Positions 9,469 through 28,446 of a stretch of 29,354 nt of DNA are shown one piece after another (within the stretch, counting starts at the first letter, position 1; each line of letters begins with the position of its first letter). This DNA is from a virus, in the IMG/VR virus record IMGVR_UViG_3300031825_000060, positions 1 through 29,354 of that record, one strand, 5' to 3'. The translations under genes were made by a program, and so were the position numbers. Below the pieces are notes generated by a model that did no database searches, was not told the DNA's origin, and saw only the letters and a list, made by a program, of their open reading frames with translations.

Positions 9469-10116
9469 CTAGCCTTGCCAGACGCGGCCCTCCTGCCACC
9501 CAGCGCGCTTGATCTTCAGCCAGTCGCGCGATCGCACGCCCGGCTGGTAGGTGCTGGCTCGCCGCTTGGCCACGAACCCCTCGAGGCCCAGCGGCAGCAC
9601 GAACTGTTGGAACAGCGCGGCCTCGGCCGGCAGCTCGCCTAGCACCAGGATCGACTGGGGCGGCACCCCAGCGAACAGCCTGGCCAGGCGCGCCTTACGC
9701 TCTACCAGCGGCAGCTCCATGATGCTGTGGCCGTCGTGCACCAGCAGGTCGAACGCGAGCAGTGTGACCGGGTCGCAACCCTTGTACCAGCGCCGCCGGC
9801 GCGCGCGGGCCTGCATTCGGTTGAAGTCGGCGCGGCCCAGGTCATCGAGCACGCAGGCCTCGCCGTCCACCACGTGCGGCCCGCGGGGCACCTGCGCCAG
9901 CACTGCGGCCACCTCGGGATACCAGGGCGTGCAGTCGGCGCCGCTCTTGGTGCGCAGCTGCACCGCGCGGCCGCCGCCCAATCCGGCCAGGCAGCGGTAG
10001 CCGTCGAACTTGATCTCGTACAGCCAGGCCGGGTCGGTGAACGCCGGCACGGCCCGATCCAGCGCCTGCATGGGCCTGATCTGGTCGACGGTGGGGGCGG
10101 GCTTCACGGCGCCCAT
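9469..10116 (-). CDS. Minimal ATP-dependent DNA ligase (adenylation domain only)
   Basis: 215 residues. Nucleotidyltransferase motifs are complete and in order: motif I EIKFDGYR (Lys36 would take the AMP), motif III VVDGEA (Glu86), motif IIIa LLAFDLL (Phe122-Asp123), motif IV LEGFVAKR (Glu179) and motif V DWLKIKR (Lys201, Lys203). It most resembles the ligase domain of LigD-type enzymes. The chain ends about a dozen residues after motif V, so the usual C-terminal OB-fold is missing; most ATP-dependent ligases are considerably longer. It would seal nicks in DNA, but without an OB-fold it may need a partner or be weakly active. It is the last gene of a minus-strand cassette convergent with the lysis genes, so it may be an accessory gene or a nick-repair factor for phage replication. 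Confidence 0.85.
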   Translation of the reverse strand: MGAVKPAPTVDQIRPMQALDRAVPAFTDPAWLYEIKFDGYRCLAGLGGGRAVQLRTKSGADCTPWYPEVAAVLAQVPRGPHVVDGEACVLDDLGRADFNRMQARARRRRWYKGCDPVTLLAFDLLVHDGHSIMELPLVERKARLARLFAGVPPQSILVLGELPAEAALFQQFVLPLGLEGFVAKRRASTYQPGVRSRDWLKIKRAGWQEGRVWQG

Positions 10117-21033: not shown

Positions 21034-23904
21034 ATGGCAACAAGAACACAAGGCGGCAGTGACCTGGGCGAGGTGGCCAGGATCCTGAACGAGAAGATCG
21101 ACTGCAACGACCTGGCCGATCGGCTGGGGTTGCGCCGCGATGGTGCCAAGGGCAATTACCACAGCCCGCACCACGAGGACAAGACGCCCAGTGTCTCGGT
21201 CTATCGCGACAAGAAAAGCGGGCTGTCCAAGTTCATGGACTACAGCATCGATAAGGGCGGCGGGCCCGTGGACATGCTGATGTGGCACAGCGGCCTGGAC
21301 TTCGTGAAGGCGGTGAAGGAGCTGGCGGGCATGTTCAACGTGCCGATCGCCGAGAGGGGCAAGCCGGCCGAGCAGCGCAAGGAAACGCTGGCCGAGTTCA
21401 TCGCTAGCAAGTGCAAGGCCGCGGTGCGCGAGGACGCGAACCCGCTCTATGACTACCTGCAGGGTCGCGGCATCAACAGCAAGGCGATTGACCACGCGAT
21501 CGAGCGCGGCACGCTGGGCCTGAACCTGTATACGAGCCCAGCCATTGACGCCGGCCAGATCAATCACGGGGGGCCCGCCGCGGCCTTCCTGGTCAAGGAC
21601 CGCAGCTCGGCGCAGATCGTGGCGGTGGACATGCGCTACTTCGACGCCGACCTGAACGGCGGCCAGAAGACGATGAGCCAGGGTGAGAAGGTGGGCTTCC
21701 CCTGGTGCAGCGACTGGCGCCGCCTCGAGGCGGCCCGCACGGTGTATGTGGTGGAGAGCTCGATCAACGCGCTGTCGATCGAGAGCTGCGTGCTGCCCGG
21801 CTGCGCGGCCGTGGCCACGCGGGGCACGGGCAATGTCGGCCGCACCGACTGGAGCTTTCTGCGCGGCAAGAGCGTGATCGCCTGCTTCGACAACGACAAG
21901 CCGCTCGAGCGCGGGCCCGACGCCGGCTACTGCGCCGGCGCCAAGGCGGCCTGGCTTCTGCACGAGATCCTGACGGGCCTGGACATCAGCTGCCAGCTGG
22001 TCGACCAGAGCGGCTGGTTCGAGGACGCCGAAAAGAAGAAGCCGATCAAAGACATCAACGACTTCCTGAAGATCCACGGCTGGGAGCGCACGACAGTGGA
22101 GCTGCGCAAGGTCGAGGAATGGGCGATCCCGGGCGTGCCGGCCGAGGGCTCGCGGGTGGGCAAAGCCAGGCTCTACTTCCCCGGCCACGACTGGTTCGCT
22201 TACACCCGCTACCGGGTGCAGCCGGACTTCACGCGCACGCTGGACAAGCAGGTGAAGAACGAGGAGAGCGGCGAGACGCGCTGGACCTACAACGACGTGT
22301 GCGGCTTCCGCATCGCCGCGGTGAGCCGGGTGCAGATCGCCAGCGACGAGAGCGCGATGACGGGCACGCCGGACCACTCGCCGCAGACGATGTTCGCCCT
22401 GACGGTGCAGACGCCGGCGGACGGCCCGGTGCTGCAGCGCATGGTGGTGGACCGCGCCCAGCTGCGCAACCTGGAGGTGTGGAAGAAAAACGGCTTCATC
22501 TTTGCGCCCACGCAGTTCAGCCGCCTGGTGAGCCTGTGGGAGCGCGCCGCCGGCATCGGCGAGCGTGACGCCGTAAATTTCGTGGGCCTGGCCTGGCGCA
22601 ACGGCAAGCCGGTGGTGAACGAAGGCGCGGACTGCTTCTTCACCGAGCCGAGCGAGCAGTGCCCGTACCACGCCCTGACGTTCCCCAGCGGCCGGCCGCA
22701 GGACGCCGGCGAGGTGCTGCAGGCGTTCCAGGCGACGTTCAAGGCGAACGCGGCCGCCATTCCCCTGATCTGGGCCGTGGGCTCGCACCTGAAGGCGTTC
22801 CTGGGTTTCTGGCCGCACTTCGTGCTGCAGGCCGAGAAGGGCGCCGGCAAGACGACGCTGGTGAAGGCGATCGGCCGCGCGATCGCGATGGCGCAGTTCA
22901 GTCGCCAGACGCTGGGCAGCGAGTACCGGATCATTGGCTCGATCAGCTACACCAGCCACCCGGTGGGCTGGGGCGAGTTCAGCACGCTCAAGCAGGACAT
23001 GCGGGCCAAGGCGGTGGCCAGCCTGCAGGAGAGCTACGGCTACGAGGCGACGAGCCGCGGCATGGGCCTGAAGCGGCGCTTTCTGCTGTGCGCGCCGGTG
23101 CTGCTGTCGGGCGAGGACGTGCCGGTGGACGCGCTGGAGGGCAAGGTGATCCGCAGCACGCTGACGCTGGCCGGCCAGGGCGAGGAGATCTCCGAGAAGC
23201 TGCCGGCGTTCCCGGTGAAGGAGTGGCTGCGCTTTCTGGCCGGCCAGGGCAAGCAACGGGTGCGCGAGGTGCACGCGGCGGCCGTGGAGCAGCTGGGCGA
23301 GCGCTGCGCCGCCGAGCTGGCCGACGCCGGCGCCAAGCGGATGCTGCAGAACTACGGCGCGGTGCTGGCCACCTGGATGCTGCTGGGGGAGTTCATGGGG
23401 CAGGAGCCGGACGACGCTGGCGCCTTCGTGCGCGACCTGGCCAAGGAGATGAACACGCACATCCAGGAGACGAAGGCGACCAGGCAGCCCTGGGTGTCGA
23501 TCATCGAGAAGCTGCTGTCCGAGATCGCGGCGCACAACTTCCGGCACCCGTTTGCCTTCGACAAGGCCGACGAGACCGACGTGCTGTTCGTCCGCACCGG
23601 CCACGTGATGGCGCACATCGCCCAGTCGAACAGCCTGCGGGACTTCTACGACGAGATCACGATCAAGAGCGACCGGGTGCTCAAGCAGCAGCTGGTGTCC
23701 GCCGGCGTGGTCGACCTGGTCAGCGAGGGCAGCAAGGAGCCCAAGCACTACGAGAAGACCGTGCGCGGCCAGCGCGTCGGGCACATGGTGGCGCTGATCG
23801 TCGATCGCCTGAAGGAGTTCGGGCTGCATCCGTCGGTGCCGATCGAGAGGGACCCGTCCGAGGAGGGCGGATCGAGCCAGCGGCGATATCGGGAGGATGC
23901 GTGA
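21034..23904 (+). CDS. Phage primase-helicase with degenerate zinc-finger region
   Basis: 956 residues. The N-terminal part (about 40-85) follows a CHC2 primase finger (NYHSPHHEDKTPSVSVY ... GGGPVDML) but the metal-binding cysteines are gone. A Toprim-like domain follows: VYVVESSINALSIE (about residue 238, catalytic Glu) and VIACFDNDKP (about residue 281, acidic pair), the metal site for primer synthesis. A middle region of unknown fold leads to a P-loop ATPase with Walker A EKGAGKTTLVK (about residues 605-615), then a helical end. It would unwind the fork and may make primers. It starts 61 bases after the early operon without a strong ribosome site. The helicase part is sure; priming activity is uncertain because of the finger. 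Confidence 0.85.
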   Translation: MATRTQGGSDLGEVARILNEKIDCNDLADRLGLRRDGAKGNYHSPHHEDKTPSVSVYRDKKSGLSKFMDYSIDKGGGPVDMLMWHSGLDFVKAVKELAGMFNVPIAERGKPAEQRKETLAEFIASKCKAAVREDANPLYDYLQGRGINSKAIDHAIERGTLGLNLYTSPAIDAGQINHGGPAAAFLVKDRSSAQIVAVDMRYFDADLNGGQKTMSQGEKVGFPWCSDWRRLEAARTVYVVESSINALSIESCVLPGCAAVATRGTGNVGRTDWSFLRGKSVIACFDNDKPLERGPDAGYCAGAKAAWLLHEILTGLDISCQLVDQSGWFEDAEKKKPIKDINDFLKIHGWERTTVELRKVEEWAIPGVPAEGSRVGKARLYFPGHDWFAYTRYRVQPDFTRTLDKQVKNEESGETRWTYNDVCGFRIAAVSRVQIASDESAMTGTPDHSPQTMFALTVQTPADGPVLQRMVVDRAQLRNLEVWKKNGFIFAPTQFSRLVSLWERAAGIGERDAVNFVGLAWRNGKPVVNEGADCFFTEPSEQCPYHALTFPSGRPQDAGEVLQAFQATFKANAAAIPLIWAVGSHLKAFLGFWPHFVLQAEKGAGKTTLVKAIGRAIAMAQFSRQTLGSEYRIIGSISYTSHPVGWGEFSTLKQDMRAKAVASLQESYGYEATSRGMGLKRRFLLCAPVLLSGEDVPVDALEGKVIRSTLTLAGQGEEISEKLPAFPVKEWLRFLAGQGKQRVREVHAAAVEQLGERCAAELADAGAKRMLQNYGAVLATWMLLGEFMGQEPDDAGAFVRDLAKEMNTHIQETKATRQPWVSIIEKLLSEIAAHNFRHPFAFDKADETDVLFVRTGHVMAHIAQSNSLRDFYDEITIKSDRVLKQQLVSAGVVDLVSEGSKEPKHYEKTVRGQRVGHMVALIVDRLKEFGLHPSVPIERDPSEEGGSSQRRYREDA

Positions 23905-24422
23905 TCGCGCCGCTGGTCACATTCGACCAGATAGACCTCGGCGAAGCGAATCAATGCCTGGGGCGCTGGGGCCACAGGATGGGCGCCCTCAACCGCGGCA
24001 ACGTGGCCGGCGTCCACTACGCCCTGTTCGAGGAGGGTCAGCCCGTGGCTGTCGCTATGGCCGCTGCGCTGATCCGCGAGCGTGTCGGCGGCGGTCTTGG
24101 CCACCTGAACCGCGAAAACACCATCGAGCTGGCCAGGCTGTGCGCCGTACGCCCCGGCCTGTGCCGCGTGGCCCTGCGGCTCTGGCGAGAGTTCGTGCTG
24201 CCCCGGATGGGCTACCTCTGGGCAATCAGCTACCAGGACGCCGACATGCACAACGGGCATACCTACCGTTTCGACGGCTGGGAGCGCGCCGGCTTCGCTC
24301 ATAGCGGCGTTGACACCCGCAGTGGCCGCCCAGGCCGCAACAAGTGGATCTGGACGTGGGAAGTGCCCGCCATACCGCCGAGCACGGCCCTACAGCCCCC
24401 TGCAGCGCGCCGGCAGGCCTGA
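23901..24422 (+). CDS. GNAT-like / Mom-like DNA modification candidate
   Basis: 173 residues from the GTG at 23901 overlapping the primase stop (GTGA). The order of motifs, GHRMGALNRGNVAGVHYALFEEGQPVAVAMAAALI, then NTIELARLCAVRPGLCRVALRLWREFVLPRMGYLWAISYQDADMHNGHTYRFDGWERAGFAHSG (in pieces), is that of the acetyltransferase-fold family that includes phage Mu Mom: an ELARLC strand, a helix, a W.ISY.D strand, and a 'G..YR..GW' loop. Mom adds a carbamoylmethyl-type group to adenine to evade restriction. Alternative: an unrelated small GNAT enzyme. The family call is by pattern and is not certain. Confidence 0.5.
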   Translation: MIAPLVTFDQIDLGEANQCLGRWGHRMGALNRGNVAGVHYALFEEGQPVAVAMAAALIRERVGGGLGHLNRENTIELARLCAVRPGLCRVALRLWREFVLPRMGYLWAISYQDADMHNGHTYRFDGWERAGFAHSGVDTRSGRPGRNKWIWTWEVPAIPPSTALQPPAARRQA

Positions 24423-24667: not shown

Positions 24668-24951
24668 ACCCGTGGATCAGTGGTCTTGTCACCATGCACC
24701 GCTAGGTTTGACTAAGCGAAGCGGCCAGTTCGCAAGATTTCAAGTTCCACGGGTTGAGGCTTTTCTTCCACGGGTCGGTCTGTTTTATCCACGGGTCGAT
24801 TTTTCGTCACACCAGACCATCACTCTCTCTCTTTCTTTTTTTATAGAGGGAGAGAGAGGAGAGAAAGGGACGGCGGCAGCGATCGAGCGATCCACGGGTT
24901 CAAAATATGTAACAGAAATGTATCCACGGGTTGAAAGCTCCATCCACGGGT
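24668..24951. repeat. Array of seven TCCACGGGTY repeats (iteron-like)
   Basis: Six direct copies of TCCACGGGT start at 24746, 24767, 24788, 24891, 24923 and 24943. One inverted copy lies at 24668-24676. The next base is always T or C. Start-to-start distances are 21, 21, 103, 32 and 20, close to whole turns of the helix, so a protein would sit on one face. Degenerate copies flank it (inverted TCCGTGGA near 24954, TCCACGGAT at 25026-25034). The third copy reads TTATCCACG, one base from a DnaA box. Confidence 0.85.
24823..24858. repeat. CT/GA-tract hairpin between the two repeat clusters
   Basis: CTCTCTCTCTTTC (24823-24835) pairs with GAGGGAGAGAGAG (24846-24858) around a loop of seven T and ATA: 11 standard pairs and two G-T pairs. 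The purine strand continues as GAGAGAAAGGGA. A homopurine/homopyrimidine tract of this type next to an AT-run could open easily or fold back; it sits in the middle of the repeat array. Confidence 0.6.
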
Positions 24952-24970
24952 TTTCCGTGGATGATTTTTT
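24942..24970 (+). terminator. Hairpin built from the last repeat, followed by T-run
   Basis: ATCCACGG (24942-24949) and CCGTGGAT (24955-24962) form a perfect 8-bp stem with a GTTTT loop, followed by GATTTTTT. The shape is that of a factor-independent terminator on the plus strand. The left arm is the sixth TCCACGGGT repeat, so the site may also be an inverted binding site. Confidence 0.5.
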
Positions 24971-25080
24971 AGGCAGAAGCGAGCAACGGCGCGGGTTTGC
25001 GGCCCATCGGCCCCCGATCCACGCATCCACGGATTGCGCTGCGTGTGTGGTGCCCGCGGCGGCTCGGGCAGGAGGTGTGC

Positions 25081-26115
25081 GTGGCTGAAAAGATCTGGAC
25101 GGACGACGAGGCGATTGATGCCTGGCTGACATGGCTTGAGGCCAGCCGCGGCCGCAAGAAGCGCACCCTGGAGAGCTACGGCATGGCGATCCGCCGGCTG
25201 CACGACTACCTGCGCGAGGACGGCTGCGCGCTGCTCGATGCCGACAAGACGCAGCTCGAGCTGTTCACCGGCCTGTACCTGCACAAAAGGGGCGTGGTGG
25301 CCCGCAGCCGCATGCCCTACATCAGCGCGGTAAAGGGCTTCTACAAGTTCGCGGCCGCGCGTCGCATGTGCCGGGCGGATCCGGCCCGGGAGCTCACGCA
25401 TCCGGCTGCCGGCAAGCCGCTGCCAAACGTGATCAGCCTGGCCAACGCGGAACGGCTGATGTGGGCGCCCGACATGAGCACCTTCATCGGGATCCGGGAC
25501 GCCGCGATGCTGTCGCTGCTGATTGGCTGCGGCCCGCGGGTGTCCGGCCTGGTGGGCCTGAACGAGAGCGCGCTGAAGACCACGCAGATCGGCAAGGAAG
25601 CGCGCATGACGGTGACCTTCGTCGAGAAGGGCGACAAGGCTCGGATGCTGCCGGTGCCGCGCGAGGCTGAAATGCTGCTGCGCGTGTACCTTGGCCATGA
25701 GGATCTGAAGGCCGTCGATCGGGAGATCGAGCCCAGGCCTGGCCAGCATGATCGGGTGCTGTTCGTGTCGGTGCGCAGCACGAAGCTGACGCCGGACCAG
25801 CACCGCGGCGAGAAGCGTCGACTAACGCGCAAGGCCGTGCACGACATGGTGCAGCGCTACGGCCGGCGCCTGGGCATCCCGGACGACGAGCTGCATCCGC
25901 ATGCCTTTCGCCACCTGTTTGGCACCGAGCTCACCGAGGACGATGTCTCATTGGCCGCGACGCAGGAGCTGATGGGCCATGCCGATCCCAAGAGCACAGC
26001 GATCTACATCCAGCTCGCCCAGCGCAAGAAGGCCCAGCTGATCGATCAGAACGCACCGCTGGCCAAGATGCGCACGCCGGTCTCCGACCTGCTCAAGCGC
26101 CTGCCGCCAGGCTGA
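25081..26115 (+). CDS. Tyrosine recombinase / phage integrase
   Basis: 344 residues from the GTG at 25081, with AGGAGG 5 bases upstream; the frame is open to 24997 but that part lies in the gene-free region. An N-terminal SAM-like core-binding domain (about residues 10-100: AIDAWLTWLEASRGRKKRTLESYGMAIRRLHDYL) precedes the catalytic domain with CGPRVSGLVGL (Arg153), VEKGDKAR (Lys186), HPHAFRHLF (His274, Arg277), LMGHADPKSTAIYIQ (His300, nucleophile Tyr309). It is full length, of XerC/D-like size, without an extra arm-binding domain. The usual Glu after the first Arg (R..E) is replaced. It may integrate the phage, resolve multimers, or be a relic next to the serine recombinase. Confidence 0.88.
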   Translation: MAEKIWTDDEAIDAWLTWLEASRGRKKRTLESYGMAIRRLHDYLREDGCALLDADKTQLELFTGLYLHKRGVVARSRMPYISAVKGFYKFAAARRMCRADPARELTHPAAGKPLPNVISLANAERLMWAPDMSTFIGIRDAAMLSLLIGCGPRVSGLVGLNESALKTTQIGKEARMTVTFVEKGDKARMLPVPREAEMLLRVYLGHEDLKAVDREIEPRPGQHDRVLFVSVRSTKLTPDQHRGEKRRLTRKAVHDMVQRYGRRLGIPDDELHPHAFRHLFGTELTEDDVSLAATQELMGHADPKSTAIYIQLAQRKKAQLIDQNAPLAKMRTPVSDLLKRLPPG

Positions 26116-26141
26116 CCCGCCCCACCTGAAAGGCCATCCCC

Positions 26142-26348
26142 ATGCCCGAAGCCACAACACAGGTACACAAACCATCTACCGTAACCATGGCACAGAGAGA
26201 TATACGGCGCCAGCGTGTGCTCTCGCGAGATCTCCAAATGTGTAACAGGAACAGCCTAAATCGTAGGAGGGGGCGCTGCGTACTCTGGCAGAAGTCGCAG
26301 TGGATCGAGGTGCGCTCACAGCGGAGGGGAGGGGCGAACCATGCATGA
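26142..26348 (+). CDS. Doubtful small basic protein
   Basis: 68 residues with AAAGG 8 bases before the ATG and an 8-base overlap with the next start. The product is basic with no recognisable fold (MAQRDIRRQRVLSRDLQMCNRNSLNRRRG). The DNA under it holds the palindrome TCTCGCGAGA and a TGTAACAG repeat, so it may be control DNA rather than a gene. Confidence 0.3.
   Translation: MPEATTQVHKPSTVTMAQRDIRRQRVLSRDLQMCNRNSLNRRRGRCVLWQKSQWIEVRSQRRGGANHA
26221..26251. promoter_or_regulatory. Palindrome and TGTAACAG repeat between integrase genes
   Basis: TCTCGCGAGA (26221-26230) is a perfect palindrome and overlaps GAGATCTC (26227-26234), itself palindromic. AAATGTGTAACAGGAA (26236-26251) matches AAATATGTAACAGAAA at 24903-24918 in 14 of 16 positions, so related sites flank the tyrosine integrase gene. 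A regulator or recombinase site is possible; nothing more specific can be said. Confidence 0.35.
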
Positions 26349-26838
26349 AAGCCGCAGTGGTGGGGCTGCACAGCTCACGTTGGATGGTGTTGCGCTACCG
26401 AATGAGATTGATTCGCGTGGGGTGGGGGGTCGGCGGGCCAGGCCTCGCCGCGGGCGGAGGGGGGGTGGGTACCTGAATGAACTCACTACCTCAAATGTTT
26501 GGGAAGTGGCAAAAATTCGCGAGCTCGAATCGATGGGCCTGCCGGGCGTTTGGCTCGCCGTTGCTCGCGAGATCGGCTACGACCGCTTCATGGCCATGTG
26601 GCGCATCCTGGACCGCTCTGTGCAGCTGCGCTCGGAGAGCGAGTCGATGATCGAGGTCCAGCTGCGCAGGCTGTCGAGCTTCCATCGCTACCAGCGCAAT
26701 CGCTTCATCGAGTCGCTCGTGGCCAGCGGCTTCGGCGACCGGGCGATCCGCGAAATGGTTCAGGCCGAACTGGGTGAAAAACTGAGTCTTTCTCATATAT
26801 CGCGCCTGGCCGGACGCCGTAAAGTAAGGGCAGCATGA
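26341..26838 (+). CDS. Probable HTH DNA-binding protein coupled to the serine recombinase
   Basis: 165 residues; a GGAGGGGAGG ribosome site precedes the ATG. The first 45 residues are basic and Gly/Arg-rich (RRARPRRGRRGGG). The rest is helical: ELESMGLPGVWLAVAREIGYDRFMAMWRILDR, then SSFHRYQRNRFIESLVASGFGDRAIREMVQAELGEKLSLSHISRLAGRRKVRAA (in pieces), whose end reads as a helix-turn-helix (AIREMVQAELGEKLSLSHISRLAG). The form is reminiscent of Mor/C-like phage activators. Its stop overlaps the recombinase start (ATGA), so the two are made together; it could control or direct the recombinase. Confidence 0.6.
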   Translation: MHESRSGGAAQLTLDGVALPNEIDSRGVGGRRARPRRGRRGGGYLNELTTSNVWEVAKIRELESMGLPGVWLAVAREIGYDRFMAMWRILDRSVQLRSESESMIEVQLRRLSSFHRYQRNRFIESLVASGFGDRAIREMVQAELGEKLSLSHISRLAGRRKVRAA

Positions 26839-28412
26839 CGAAGCGCGCGGTGATCTATGCCCGAGTGAGCAAGCAACGCGAGGAGAGCGTGTCGATAGAG
26901 GCCCAGATCGAGCAATGCACGGCGCGCGCGGCTCAGCTGGGGGCGTCCGTGGTCCAGGTGTTCCTGGACGACGGGATCAGCGGGCGGGAGGCACGCAACC
27001 GGGCCGCGTTCCTTAAGGCGAAGGCGTATTGCGAAGCGGCGAACGTCGATTACTTCATCACCTGGTCGACGTCGCGGTTTGCGCGCAACCTGATGGAGCT
27101 GTTCAAGAGCGAGGCCGAGCTGAGGGAGATCGGCACCAGGCTGGAGTGCCTGAATGCCGACACCGACGACGAGACGGACGCCGGCTTCATCAGCAAGGTG
27201 TTCAACGGCGCGATGGACGAGATGTATTCGCGCCAGGTGGCCCGCGACACGCTGCGATCGCAGAAGAAGTCGGCCGAGGCGGGCTACTTCACCGGCGGCC
27301 AGATGCCATTCGGGTACCGGCCGGTGAAGGACGGGCAGAAGACCCGGCTGGAGATCGATCCGGACACCGCGCCCATCGTGCTCAAGGCGTTCGAGCTCTG
27401 CCTGCAGGGCGGCCTGGGCGTGCAGGCGATCGCGCTGCAGCTGAACCACCTGGGCATGCTGCGTGCCGGCAAACGGTGGGGCAAGAACACCGTCAACTAC
27501 ATGCTGAAAAACGAGGTTTACACCGGCGTGAAGACGTTCAACAAGACACATCGCAAGACGCGGAAGATCAAGCCGCGGGACCAATGGGTCCAGGTGGCCA
27601 GCCATCCGGCCCTGGTGAGCAAAGACGATTTTGAAAAGGTTCAGGCCATGATGGAACAACGCATGCCGCATGGCGGCCACGGCGGTACGCCACTGAGCAC
27701 CTTCCTCTTCACGGGCCTGGTCGAGTGTGGAATCTGCGGCGAAAAACTGCAGATTTCGAACGGCACCGGCCGCAACGGGATGCGTTACAGCTACTACGGC
27801 TGCATGGCGCACAAGAAGGGCGCGCCGCGGTGCCTGTTCCGCAAGGTGCGGGCCGATCTGCTGGACGAATGGCTGCTGGGCGAGATCCTCGAGCACGTGA
27901 TCACGCCTGCCACGATGGCCGAGGCGATGGAGGACCTGATTGGCGCAAGCGTCGAGTGGGTCCGCGAGCGGGAAACGACGCGCGCCGCCCTGGTGAAACA
28001 GCTGCGCCAAGTGGAAGCGGGACGTGATCGGCTGCTCGAAGTGCTCGAAGCTGCTGGCAAAGACACCGGCGATCTCGCCCAGGTGCTCAAGCGTCTGCGC
28101 GAGCGAGGTGCTGAGATCGAACAGCTGCAGCGCGACCTGACGGCCCTGGAGACCATGCCAGCGCCCGGGCGCATTTCCAAGATCGACCCGGTCGTGGCGG
28201 TCGAAGTGATGCGCGAAGTAATCGACGTCTCGGACACCAAGAAAAAACGCGCCTTCCTGGGCGCGTTTATCCAAAAGGTAGTTCTGGAGACGGGCGTGGC
28301 CACCGTGGACTACCGCACCGACGGGCTGATACATGCTGGCACCAAGACCAGTTTTCACAGCGTGAATCGTTGGCTCCTCGACCTGGGCTCGAACCAGGGA
28401 CCTACGGATTAA
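26835..28412 (+). CDS. Large serine recombinase (phage integrase)
   Basis: 525 residues. N-terminal resolvase-fold catalytic domain: AVIYARVSKQREESVSIEAQ with nucleophile Ser12, plus Arg81/Arg84 in WSTSRFARNL. A recombinase domain follows (from ~150: GYFTGGQMPFGYRPVKDG ... WGKNTVNYMLKNEVYTG), then a zinc ribbon (Cys298, Cys301, Cys323, Cys333: VECGICGEKL ... YYGCMAHKKGAPRC) and a long coiled coil (~370-440) of the type that controls the direction of large serine integrases. The last residues, NRWLLDLGSNQGPTD, are read from the antisense strand of a tRNA-Asn gene, so the gene end is also the attachment site. It is coupled to the HTH gene upstream. Confidence 0.9.
   Translation: MTKRAVIYARVSKQREESVSIEAQIEQCTARAAQLGASVVQVFLDDGISGREARNRAAFLKAKAYCEAANVDYFITWSTSRFARNLMELFKSEAELREIGTRLECLNADTDDETDAGFISKVFNGAMDEMYSRQVARDTLRSQKKSAEAGYFTGGQMPFGYRPVKDGQKTRLEIDPDTAPIVLKAFELCLQGGLGVQAIALQLNHLGMLRAGKRWGKNTVNYMLKNEVYTGVKTFNKTHRKTRKIKPRDQWVQVASHPALVSKDDFEKVQAMMEQRMPHGGHGGTPLSTFLFTGLVECGICGEKLQISNGTGRNGMRYSYYGCMAHKKGAPRCLFRKVRADLLDEWLLGEILEHVITPATMAEAMEDLIGASVEWVRERETTRAALVKQLRQVEAGRDRLLEVLEAAGKDTGDLAQVLKRLRERGAEIEQLQRDLTALETMPAPGRISKIDPVVAVEVMREVIDVSDTKKKRAFLGAFIQKVVLETGVATVDYRTDGLIHAGTKTSFHSVNRWLLDLGSNQGPTD
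28371..28412. other. Prophage attachment site within tRNA-Asn (overlap of recombinase end)
   Basis: The recombinase reading frame runs 42 bases into the 3' half of the tRNA gene before its stop. Phage genes lie to the left and a host gene to the right, so the crossover must lie in or near this stretch. The left copy is outside the window, so the exact core cannot be measured. Recombination that leaves the tRNA intact is standard for tRNA-targeting elements. Confidence 0.6.
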
Positions 28413-28446
28413 CAGTCCGGCGCTCTACCGACTGAGCTATCGAGGA
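28371..28446 (-). tRNA. tRNA-Asn (anticodon GTT)
   Basis: On the minus strand the 76 bases begin TCCTCGA and end TCGAGGA-G-CCA, giving a perfect 7-bp acceptor stem with encoded CCA. The D-arm GCTCAGTCGGTAGAGC, anticodon loop CTGTTAA (GTT, Asn) and T-arm with GGTTCGAGCC are all canonical and very close to bacterial tRNA-Asn. The gene looks intact after integration: its 5' half is on the host side, the 3' half overlaps the serine recombinase gene in antisense. Confidence 0.96.

What the first reader, a model, noticed from the sequence alone, without database searches (positions are those of the whole stretch)
24668..24951. Phased array of TCCACGGGTY repeats beside the primase-helicase gene
Seven identical 9-mers (six direct, one inverted) lie in a gene-free, AT-richer region between the replication and recombination genes. 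Spacings of 21, 21, 32 and 20 bases put them on one face of the helix, and the third copy (TTATCCACG) is one base from a DnaA box. This is the layout of an iteron origin or of a cooperative operator. No known initiator (RepA/O-type) gene is obvious nearby, so the protein that reads the repeats is unknown and could be one of the small HTH proteins of the operon.
Basis: partly seen in the sequence, partly recalled or inferred. Interest (0 to 1): 0.72.

Follow-up and report, generated by a model that had tools for sequence, protein, structure and literature searches.

The report
Phage replication origin with iterons
The repeats are most likely the DNA landing pad of the phage's own primase-helicase, that is, its replication origin; the same layout recurs in more than 150 related phage loci with the repeat letters changed, and those changes track changes in the DNA-binding end of the protein.

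Summary
The array is real: seven exact TCCACGGGT 9-mers in 284 bp, plus degenerate direct and inverted copies. Its layout (inverted copy, three direct copies 21 bp apart, polypyrimidine/polypurine hairpin, copies 32 and 20 bp apart, inverted copy) recurs downstream of the primase-helicase gene in 155 of 196 related loci, including Burkholderia phages KS5, KL3, Carl1 and Musica; KS14 and FLC5 carry it a little further away. A letter-free search found it; shuffled controls never reached those scores. Repeat letters differ between lineages while spacing is kept. Changes at iteron bases 1, 4 and 7 (more weakly 2 and 8) coincide with changes at single residues of the primase's C-terminal winged helix (909, 854, 917; 907, 880). 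The predicted structure is a DnaG-type primase fused to a helicase like SaPIBov1 Rep and SCCmec Cch, a type of initiator that binds iterons directly downstream of its own gene. A DnaA box is not supported. Most relatives carry flanking IHF consensus sites, which this window lacks. Replication from the array is inferred, not shown.

The parts
21034..23904 (+). Primase-helicase gene (956 aa): CHC2 zinc ribbon, TOPRIM primase, SaPI Rep/Cch-like helicase, C-terminal winged helix (about aa 855-922). Proposed initiator.
   Evidence: phrog_5629 DNA primase, Pfam Zn_ribbon_DnaG and Toprim_3; fold matches DnaG, SaPIBov1 Rep, SCCmec Cch
24668..24676 (-). Left inverted iteron
   Evidence: conserved about 69-78 bp before block 1 in relatives
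24746..24796 (+). Block 1: iterons at 24746, 24767, 24788 (21-bp spacing)
   Evidence: same spacing in relatives
24823..24858 (.). Polypyrimidine/polypurine inverted repeat in the AT-richer gap between the blocks (candidate opening region)
   Evidence: present in every aligned relative shown
24891..24951 (+). Block 2: iterons at 24891, 24923, 24943 (32- and 20-bp spacing) with AT-rich spacer 24900-24922
   Evidence: same spacing in relatives
24941..24963 (.). Iteron hairpin CATCCACGG-GTTTT-CCGTGGATG followed by a T run; the right arm is an inverted iteron
25018..25034 (+). Two degenerate terminal iterons (TCCACGC, TCCACGGAT)
   Evidence: paired terminal copies recur in relatives
25081..26115 (+). 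Neighbouring XerD-like tyrosine recombinase; not needed for the array in relatives
   Evidence: Pfam Phage_integrase; absent beside the array in 61 loci with enough flank

Best explanation
The array is the phage's replication origin, and its initiator is the primase-helicase encoded upstream (21034-23904). The C-terminal winged helix of the protein binds the iterons; copies on both sides of an AT-richer, hairpin-forming segment assemble helicase rings, the segment opens, and the fused DnaG-type primase domain primes synthesis. In most relatives IHF probably bends the DNA at two flanking sites; this window lacks them. Shown by computation: the conserved layout, its tie to this gene, residue-base covariation, and the predicted fold. 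Inferred: binding, ring loading, opening, and replication starting here.
For: Same layout, different letters, downstream of the same primase family in 155 of 196 loci; shuffled segments never exceed score 20 while real ones reach 41. P2-like phages and plasmid prophages with other or no integrases keep it. Iteron bases 1, 4, 7, 8 have aa 909, 854, 917, 880 as the top-ranked of 873 columns on a tree made from aa 1-740 only; bases 1, 2, 4, 7 exceed all 53 control spacer positions of the same arrays. All these residues lie in the predicted winged helix (recognition helix start, wing, N-terminal arm). Full model matches SaPIBov1 Rep (E 1e-8) and SCCmec Cch (E 7e-7) besides DnaG; SaPI Rep reads iterons directly downstream of its gene with its C-terminal domain (PMC7581432). 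IHF sites about 80-fold enriched in relatives' arrays at fixed places. The window's residues R854, D880, T909, H917 are those expected for TCCACGGGT. No Rep_3, RepL or other plasmid-type initiator was found among the window proteins scanned.
Against: No binding or replication data exist. Spacer bases also co-change with primase columns (up to p 3e-8), so part of the covariation is physical linkage. Prediction of bases from residues barely beats nearest-neighbour copying, and some close pairs change base 7 or 8 without a matching residue change. Yong1 keeps the array 11.6 kb from the primase and violates the base-1 rule. The window has no IHF site. GC skew is inconclusive. Some relatives of the primase show no such array within 3.6 kb.
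Confidence: 0.85

Rival explanations
1. Arm-type or accessory binding sites of the adjacent tyrosine recombinase, i.e. a recombination or dimer-resolution site assisted by IHF, as in lambda attP.
For: The recombinase gene follows the array here and in 40 relatives; in yong1 the array lies by the recombinase and far from the primase; IHF sites are common.
Against: 61 loci with enough flank have the array without this recombinase; no integrase is annotated in KS14 and FLC5, which keep it. The window's att end appears to be the tRNA-Asn at 28371-28446, 3.4 kb away. Covariation points to the primase; covariation with the recombinase was not tested.
Confidence: 0.06
2. A cooperative operator at which the primase or another regulator controls transcription of the downstream recombinase genes, without origin function.
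For: The array sits just before a gene; the terminal hairpin with a T run resembles a terminator. Many initiators also repress at their iterons.
Against: The genes downstream differ between relatives while the array does not; more than seven sites over about 370 bp on both sides of an AT-rich hairpin is more than an operator needs; the reader protein is a helicase-primase.
Confidence: 0.05
3. Centromere-like partition site (parS).
For: In KS14 and FLC5 the array lies near parA.
Against: No ParA was identified among the window proteins scanned, and most relatives are integrating prophages. FLC5 and KS14 have separate TTGATATCAA-type palindromes by parA, better parS candidates.
Confidence: 0.02

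Closest known systems
SaPI Rep and its origin (staphylococcal pathogenicity islands), with SCCmec Cch/Cch2
   Same: Self-loading initiator helicase whose C-terminal domain reads iterons directly downstream of its own gene (PMC7581432); full-length fold matches SaPIBov1 Rep 8tch and Cch 5dgk
   Different: Here a DnaG-type primase is fused in the same chain; phages of Proteobacteria; much longer two-block scaffold with hairpin, inverted copies and, in most relatives, IHF sites
Phage P4 alpha protein and its ori/crr iterons (from own knowledge)
   Same: Primase, helicase and origin-binding winged helix in one chain acting on iterons
   Different: P4 alpha origin-binding domain was not among the fold hits; different primase domain and layout; not tested by sequence
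Iteron plasmid origins with Rep_3 initiators (RK2, R6K, pSC101 type)
   Same: Direct repeats about two helical turns apart, AT-rich part, IHF sites in many members
   Different: Initiator is not Rep_3; no such gene among window proteins scanned
Burkholderia P2-like phages KS5, KL3, KS14, AP3
   Same: Same primase family, 46-49% identity; array found here in KS5, KL3, Carl1, Musica, KS14, FLC5 (AP3 array not inspected)
   Different: Their genome papers do not mention iterons; iteron letters differ; other integrase, or plasmid prophage

Membership tests
SaPI Rep/ori-type replicon | Initiator helicase of the SaPIBov1 Rep/Cch fold | tested here: met
   8tch E 1.1e-8, 5dgk E 7e-7 with the full model; the ATPase core itself is poorly modelled and sequence search finds only DnaG
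SaPI Rep/ori-type replicon | C-terminal winged helix that reads the iterons | tested here: inconclusive
   Winged helix predicted at pLDDT 91 and residue-base covariation above control, but binding is untested and linkage contributes
SaPI Rep/ori-type replicon | Iterons directly downstream of the rep gene | tested here: met
   Median 470 bp from primase stop to fourth iteron; in the window a Mom-like gene lies between
SaPI Rep/ori-type replicon | Replication starts at the iterons | not testable with these tools
   Needs replication data; GC skew inconclusive
Rep_3 iteron plasmid origin | Rep_3 initiator gene in the element | tested here: not met
   None among window proteins scanned
DnaA-dependent origin | DnaA boxes above chance | tested here: not met
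   No exact box; near-matches at chance level
attP of a tyrosine recombinase | Array always accompanies its recombinase | tested here: not met
   61 loci with array and flank but no window-type recombinase
P4 alpha-type initiator | Origin-binding domain homologous to P4 alpha | tested here: inconclusive
   P4 origin-binding domain not among listed fold hits; no direct comparison made

The most novel reading that the evidence does not exclude
This is an undescribed, widespread family of phage origins with a partly readable recognition code (aa 909, 854, 917, 880 against iteron bases 1, 4, 7, 8), so that nature has produced many mutually incompatible origin-initiator pairs on one scaffold; in KS14 and FLC5 it coexists with a separate plasmid replication gene, one origin for lysis and one for lysogeny.
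Probability: 0.5. Interest if true: 0.7.

Novelty: new variant of a known kind. Interest (0 to 1): 0.6.

Why it matters
It names the likely origin and initiator for a large group of phages of Proteobacteria, including Burkholderia P2-like phages studied for therapy, whose genome papers do not mention iterons. It links the SaPI/SCC type of self-loading initiator helicase to DnaG-fused phage primases. The natural variety of iteron letters on a fixed scaffold makes the question of how initiators change origin specificity directly testable with existing sequences.

Tried and rejected
DnaA box at 24785: rejected, chance level. IHF site in the window itself: none in the array apart from a one-mismatch hit that is an iteron, although most relatives have them. 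Direct DNA similarity of the array to phage records: no match, because letters diverge. GC skew of KS14 and FLC5: inconclusive. Plasmid state of KS14 as proof of origin function: dropped, since KS14 gp37 is a Rep_3 initiator and FLC5 ORF44 is RepL-like. A first control run wrongly treated Asn as missing data; it was repeated correctly and one search should be ignored. Many of the 73 contigs from the exact two-copy pattern scan are chance matches or simple tandem repeats; only those with the layout were used. One paper look-up by a guessed DOI gave an unrelated paper.

Full report
Observation. The region is 50% G+C in a 67% G+C record. The window is a 29,354-bp virus record. At its right end the serine recombinase gene runs into a tRNA-Asn gene, followed by an ORF that looks like the end of a TonB-type receptor, probably host (by eye).

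Relatives by exact pattern. A scan of viral contigs for two copies 8-30 bp apart gave 73 contigs. About 30 of these show the same architecture, often to the base: inverted copy, about 69 bp, then copies at +21, +21, +103, +32, +20, an inverted copy 18 bp on, and one more at about +65. In nearly all, the primase gene lies on one side, and in most the XerD-like recombinase on the other. Named phages with the same primase are mainly P2-like Burkholderia phages, and Microcystis phage yong1. Read by eye, they carry the same scaffold with other letters: GCCACGGGT in Carl1, GCCACGAGT/GCCACTAGT in KL3, KS5 and Musica, TCCTCGG in FLC5 and KS14, TTCCACGG in yong1.

Relatives by protein, letter-free. 160 loci fetched with primase alignments were searched, with the earlier ones, for words that resemble each other at the fixed spacings, without fixing the letters. 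Scores reach 21-41 in 155 of 196 loci (a few borderline hits removed by eye), while block-shuffled versions of the same segments had a median of 16 and a maximum of 20. Many loci are near-duplicates; 35 remain at below 80% primase identity. The distance from primase stop to the fourth iteron has median 470 bp, but is 1-3 kb in 15 loci; in FLC5 the array is about 2.6 kb downstream, and in yong1 11.6 kb away on the other side. The loci were selected by their primase; the window-type recombinase is beside the array in 40 loci, missing in 61 with enough flank, and untestable in 53.

Who reads it. Consensus iterons of 129 loci were compared with every column of the primase alignment. By normalised mutual information over all loci, the best column for base 1 is aa 909 (R with G 77 times, T with T 43 times), for base 4 aa 854 (R with A 104, N with C 13), for base 7 aa 917 (Y with A 61, H with G 52), for base 8 aa 880 (D with G 101; A, G or other residues with T) (column numbers are aa + 3). 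On a tree from aa 1-740 only, these four residues are rank 1 of 873 for co-change (p 5.9e-6, 1.2e-15, 9.3e-8, 6.0e-6; base 4 shows R>N with A>C six times and N>R with C>A six times). Spacer positions in the same arrays also co-change with primase columns, so linkage exists, but their best overlap is at most 0.32 and only 25% of their best columns lie at aa 826 or beyond. Iteron bases 1, 2, 4 and 7 reach 0.40, 0.50, 0.59 and 0.39, and their best columns all lie there. Base 8 (0.29) is within the control range. A natural experiment: L133 and L152 primases are 97.6% identical with 22 differences, 12 of them at aa 820 or beyond and including R854N, and their iterons are GCCACGAGT and GCCCCGAGT. 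Against over-reading: leave-one-out prediction barely beats nearest-neighbour copying (57 v 55, 53 v 53, 53 v 50, 50 v 47 of 61), and some pairs change base 7 or 8 with no matching residue change. The code is therefore a tendency, and co-transfer of the gene end with the neighbouring array explains part of it. The window's own residues (R854, D880, T909, H917) are those expected for TCCACGGGT.

Structure. The C-terminal 216 aa are predicted at pLDDT 91 as a helical domain followed by a winged helix with helices 855-864, 866-874, 880-889 and wing strands 906-910 and 913-922. The covarying residues lie at the start of the third (recognition) helix, in the wing, and just before the first helix. 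Fold search of this part alone gave no match below E 0.001; the best were a winged-helix relaxosome accessory protein of pCW3 bound to oriT DNA (5vfx, E 0.03) and SaPIBov1 Rep (8tch, E 0.075, 208 aligned columns). The full model (pLDDT 78, with the ATPase core around 590-704 poorly modelled) matches DnaG primase and then SaPIBov1 Rep and SCCmec Cch.

Origin features. The segment between the blocks is the most AT-rich part on average (48% G+C against 62-65% nearby), and IHF consensus sites are about 80-fold enriched in arrays (167 in 57 kb against 53 in 1.45 Mb), 92 of them at exactly -28 from the first iteron and 55 at +97/98 from the fourth. The window itself lacks them, so IHF is not obligatory for the design or has been replaced there. 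[quoted passage not shown] That is the closest working model.

Conclusion. The array is most likely the replication origin bound by the primase-helicase (0.85). Shown here by computation: the array, its conservation, its tie to the primase gene, residue-base covariation above control for four bases, the predicted fold. Not shown: binding, opening, initiation. It works like SaPI Rep/ori and, from own knowledge, like P4 alpha; as a DnaG-fused, phage-borne version with its own scaffold it is a new variant of that kind. No paper found in the held library describes iterons or an origin for this phage group, but most subscription papers are not held, so novelty in the literature is provisional.

Noticed in passing
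L247 27740-28495 (KS14) and L248 30290-30799 (FLC5): These phages, KS14 a known plasmid prophage, carry Rep_3 and RepL-like plasmid replication proteins beside the primase and array, suggesting two separate origins.
   Followed up: partly
window 26835-28446: The serine recombinase gene ends inside a tRNA-Asn gene on the other strand, which looks like the attachment end of the prophage.
   Followed up: no
window 25081-28412: A tyrosine recombinase, a 165-aa protein without family, and a serine recombinase form a block conserved in many relatives; why two recombinases are kept together is unknown.
   Followed up: partly
window 23901-24422: Mom-like DNA modification protein family (phrog_1384) between primase and array.
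   Followed up: no
window 9469-10116 (-): ORF with an ATP-dependent DNA ligase domain.
   Followed up: no
L081 2060-2420; L010 3110-3560: In Microcystis phage yong1 the array lies next to the tyrosine recombinase and 11.6 kb from the primase; the L010/L096 contig also has them apart.
   Followed up: partly
L193, L216, L222, L229, L232, L245 downstream of the primase: Several loci, mostly gammaproteobacterial, with this primase show no array of this layout within 3.6 kb; their origin may have another layout or place.
   Followed up: partly
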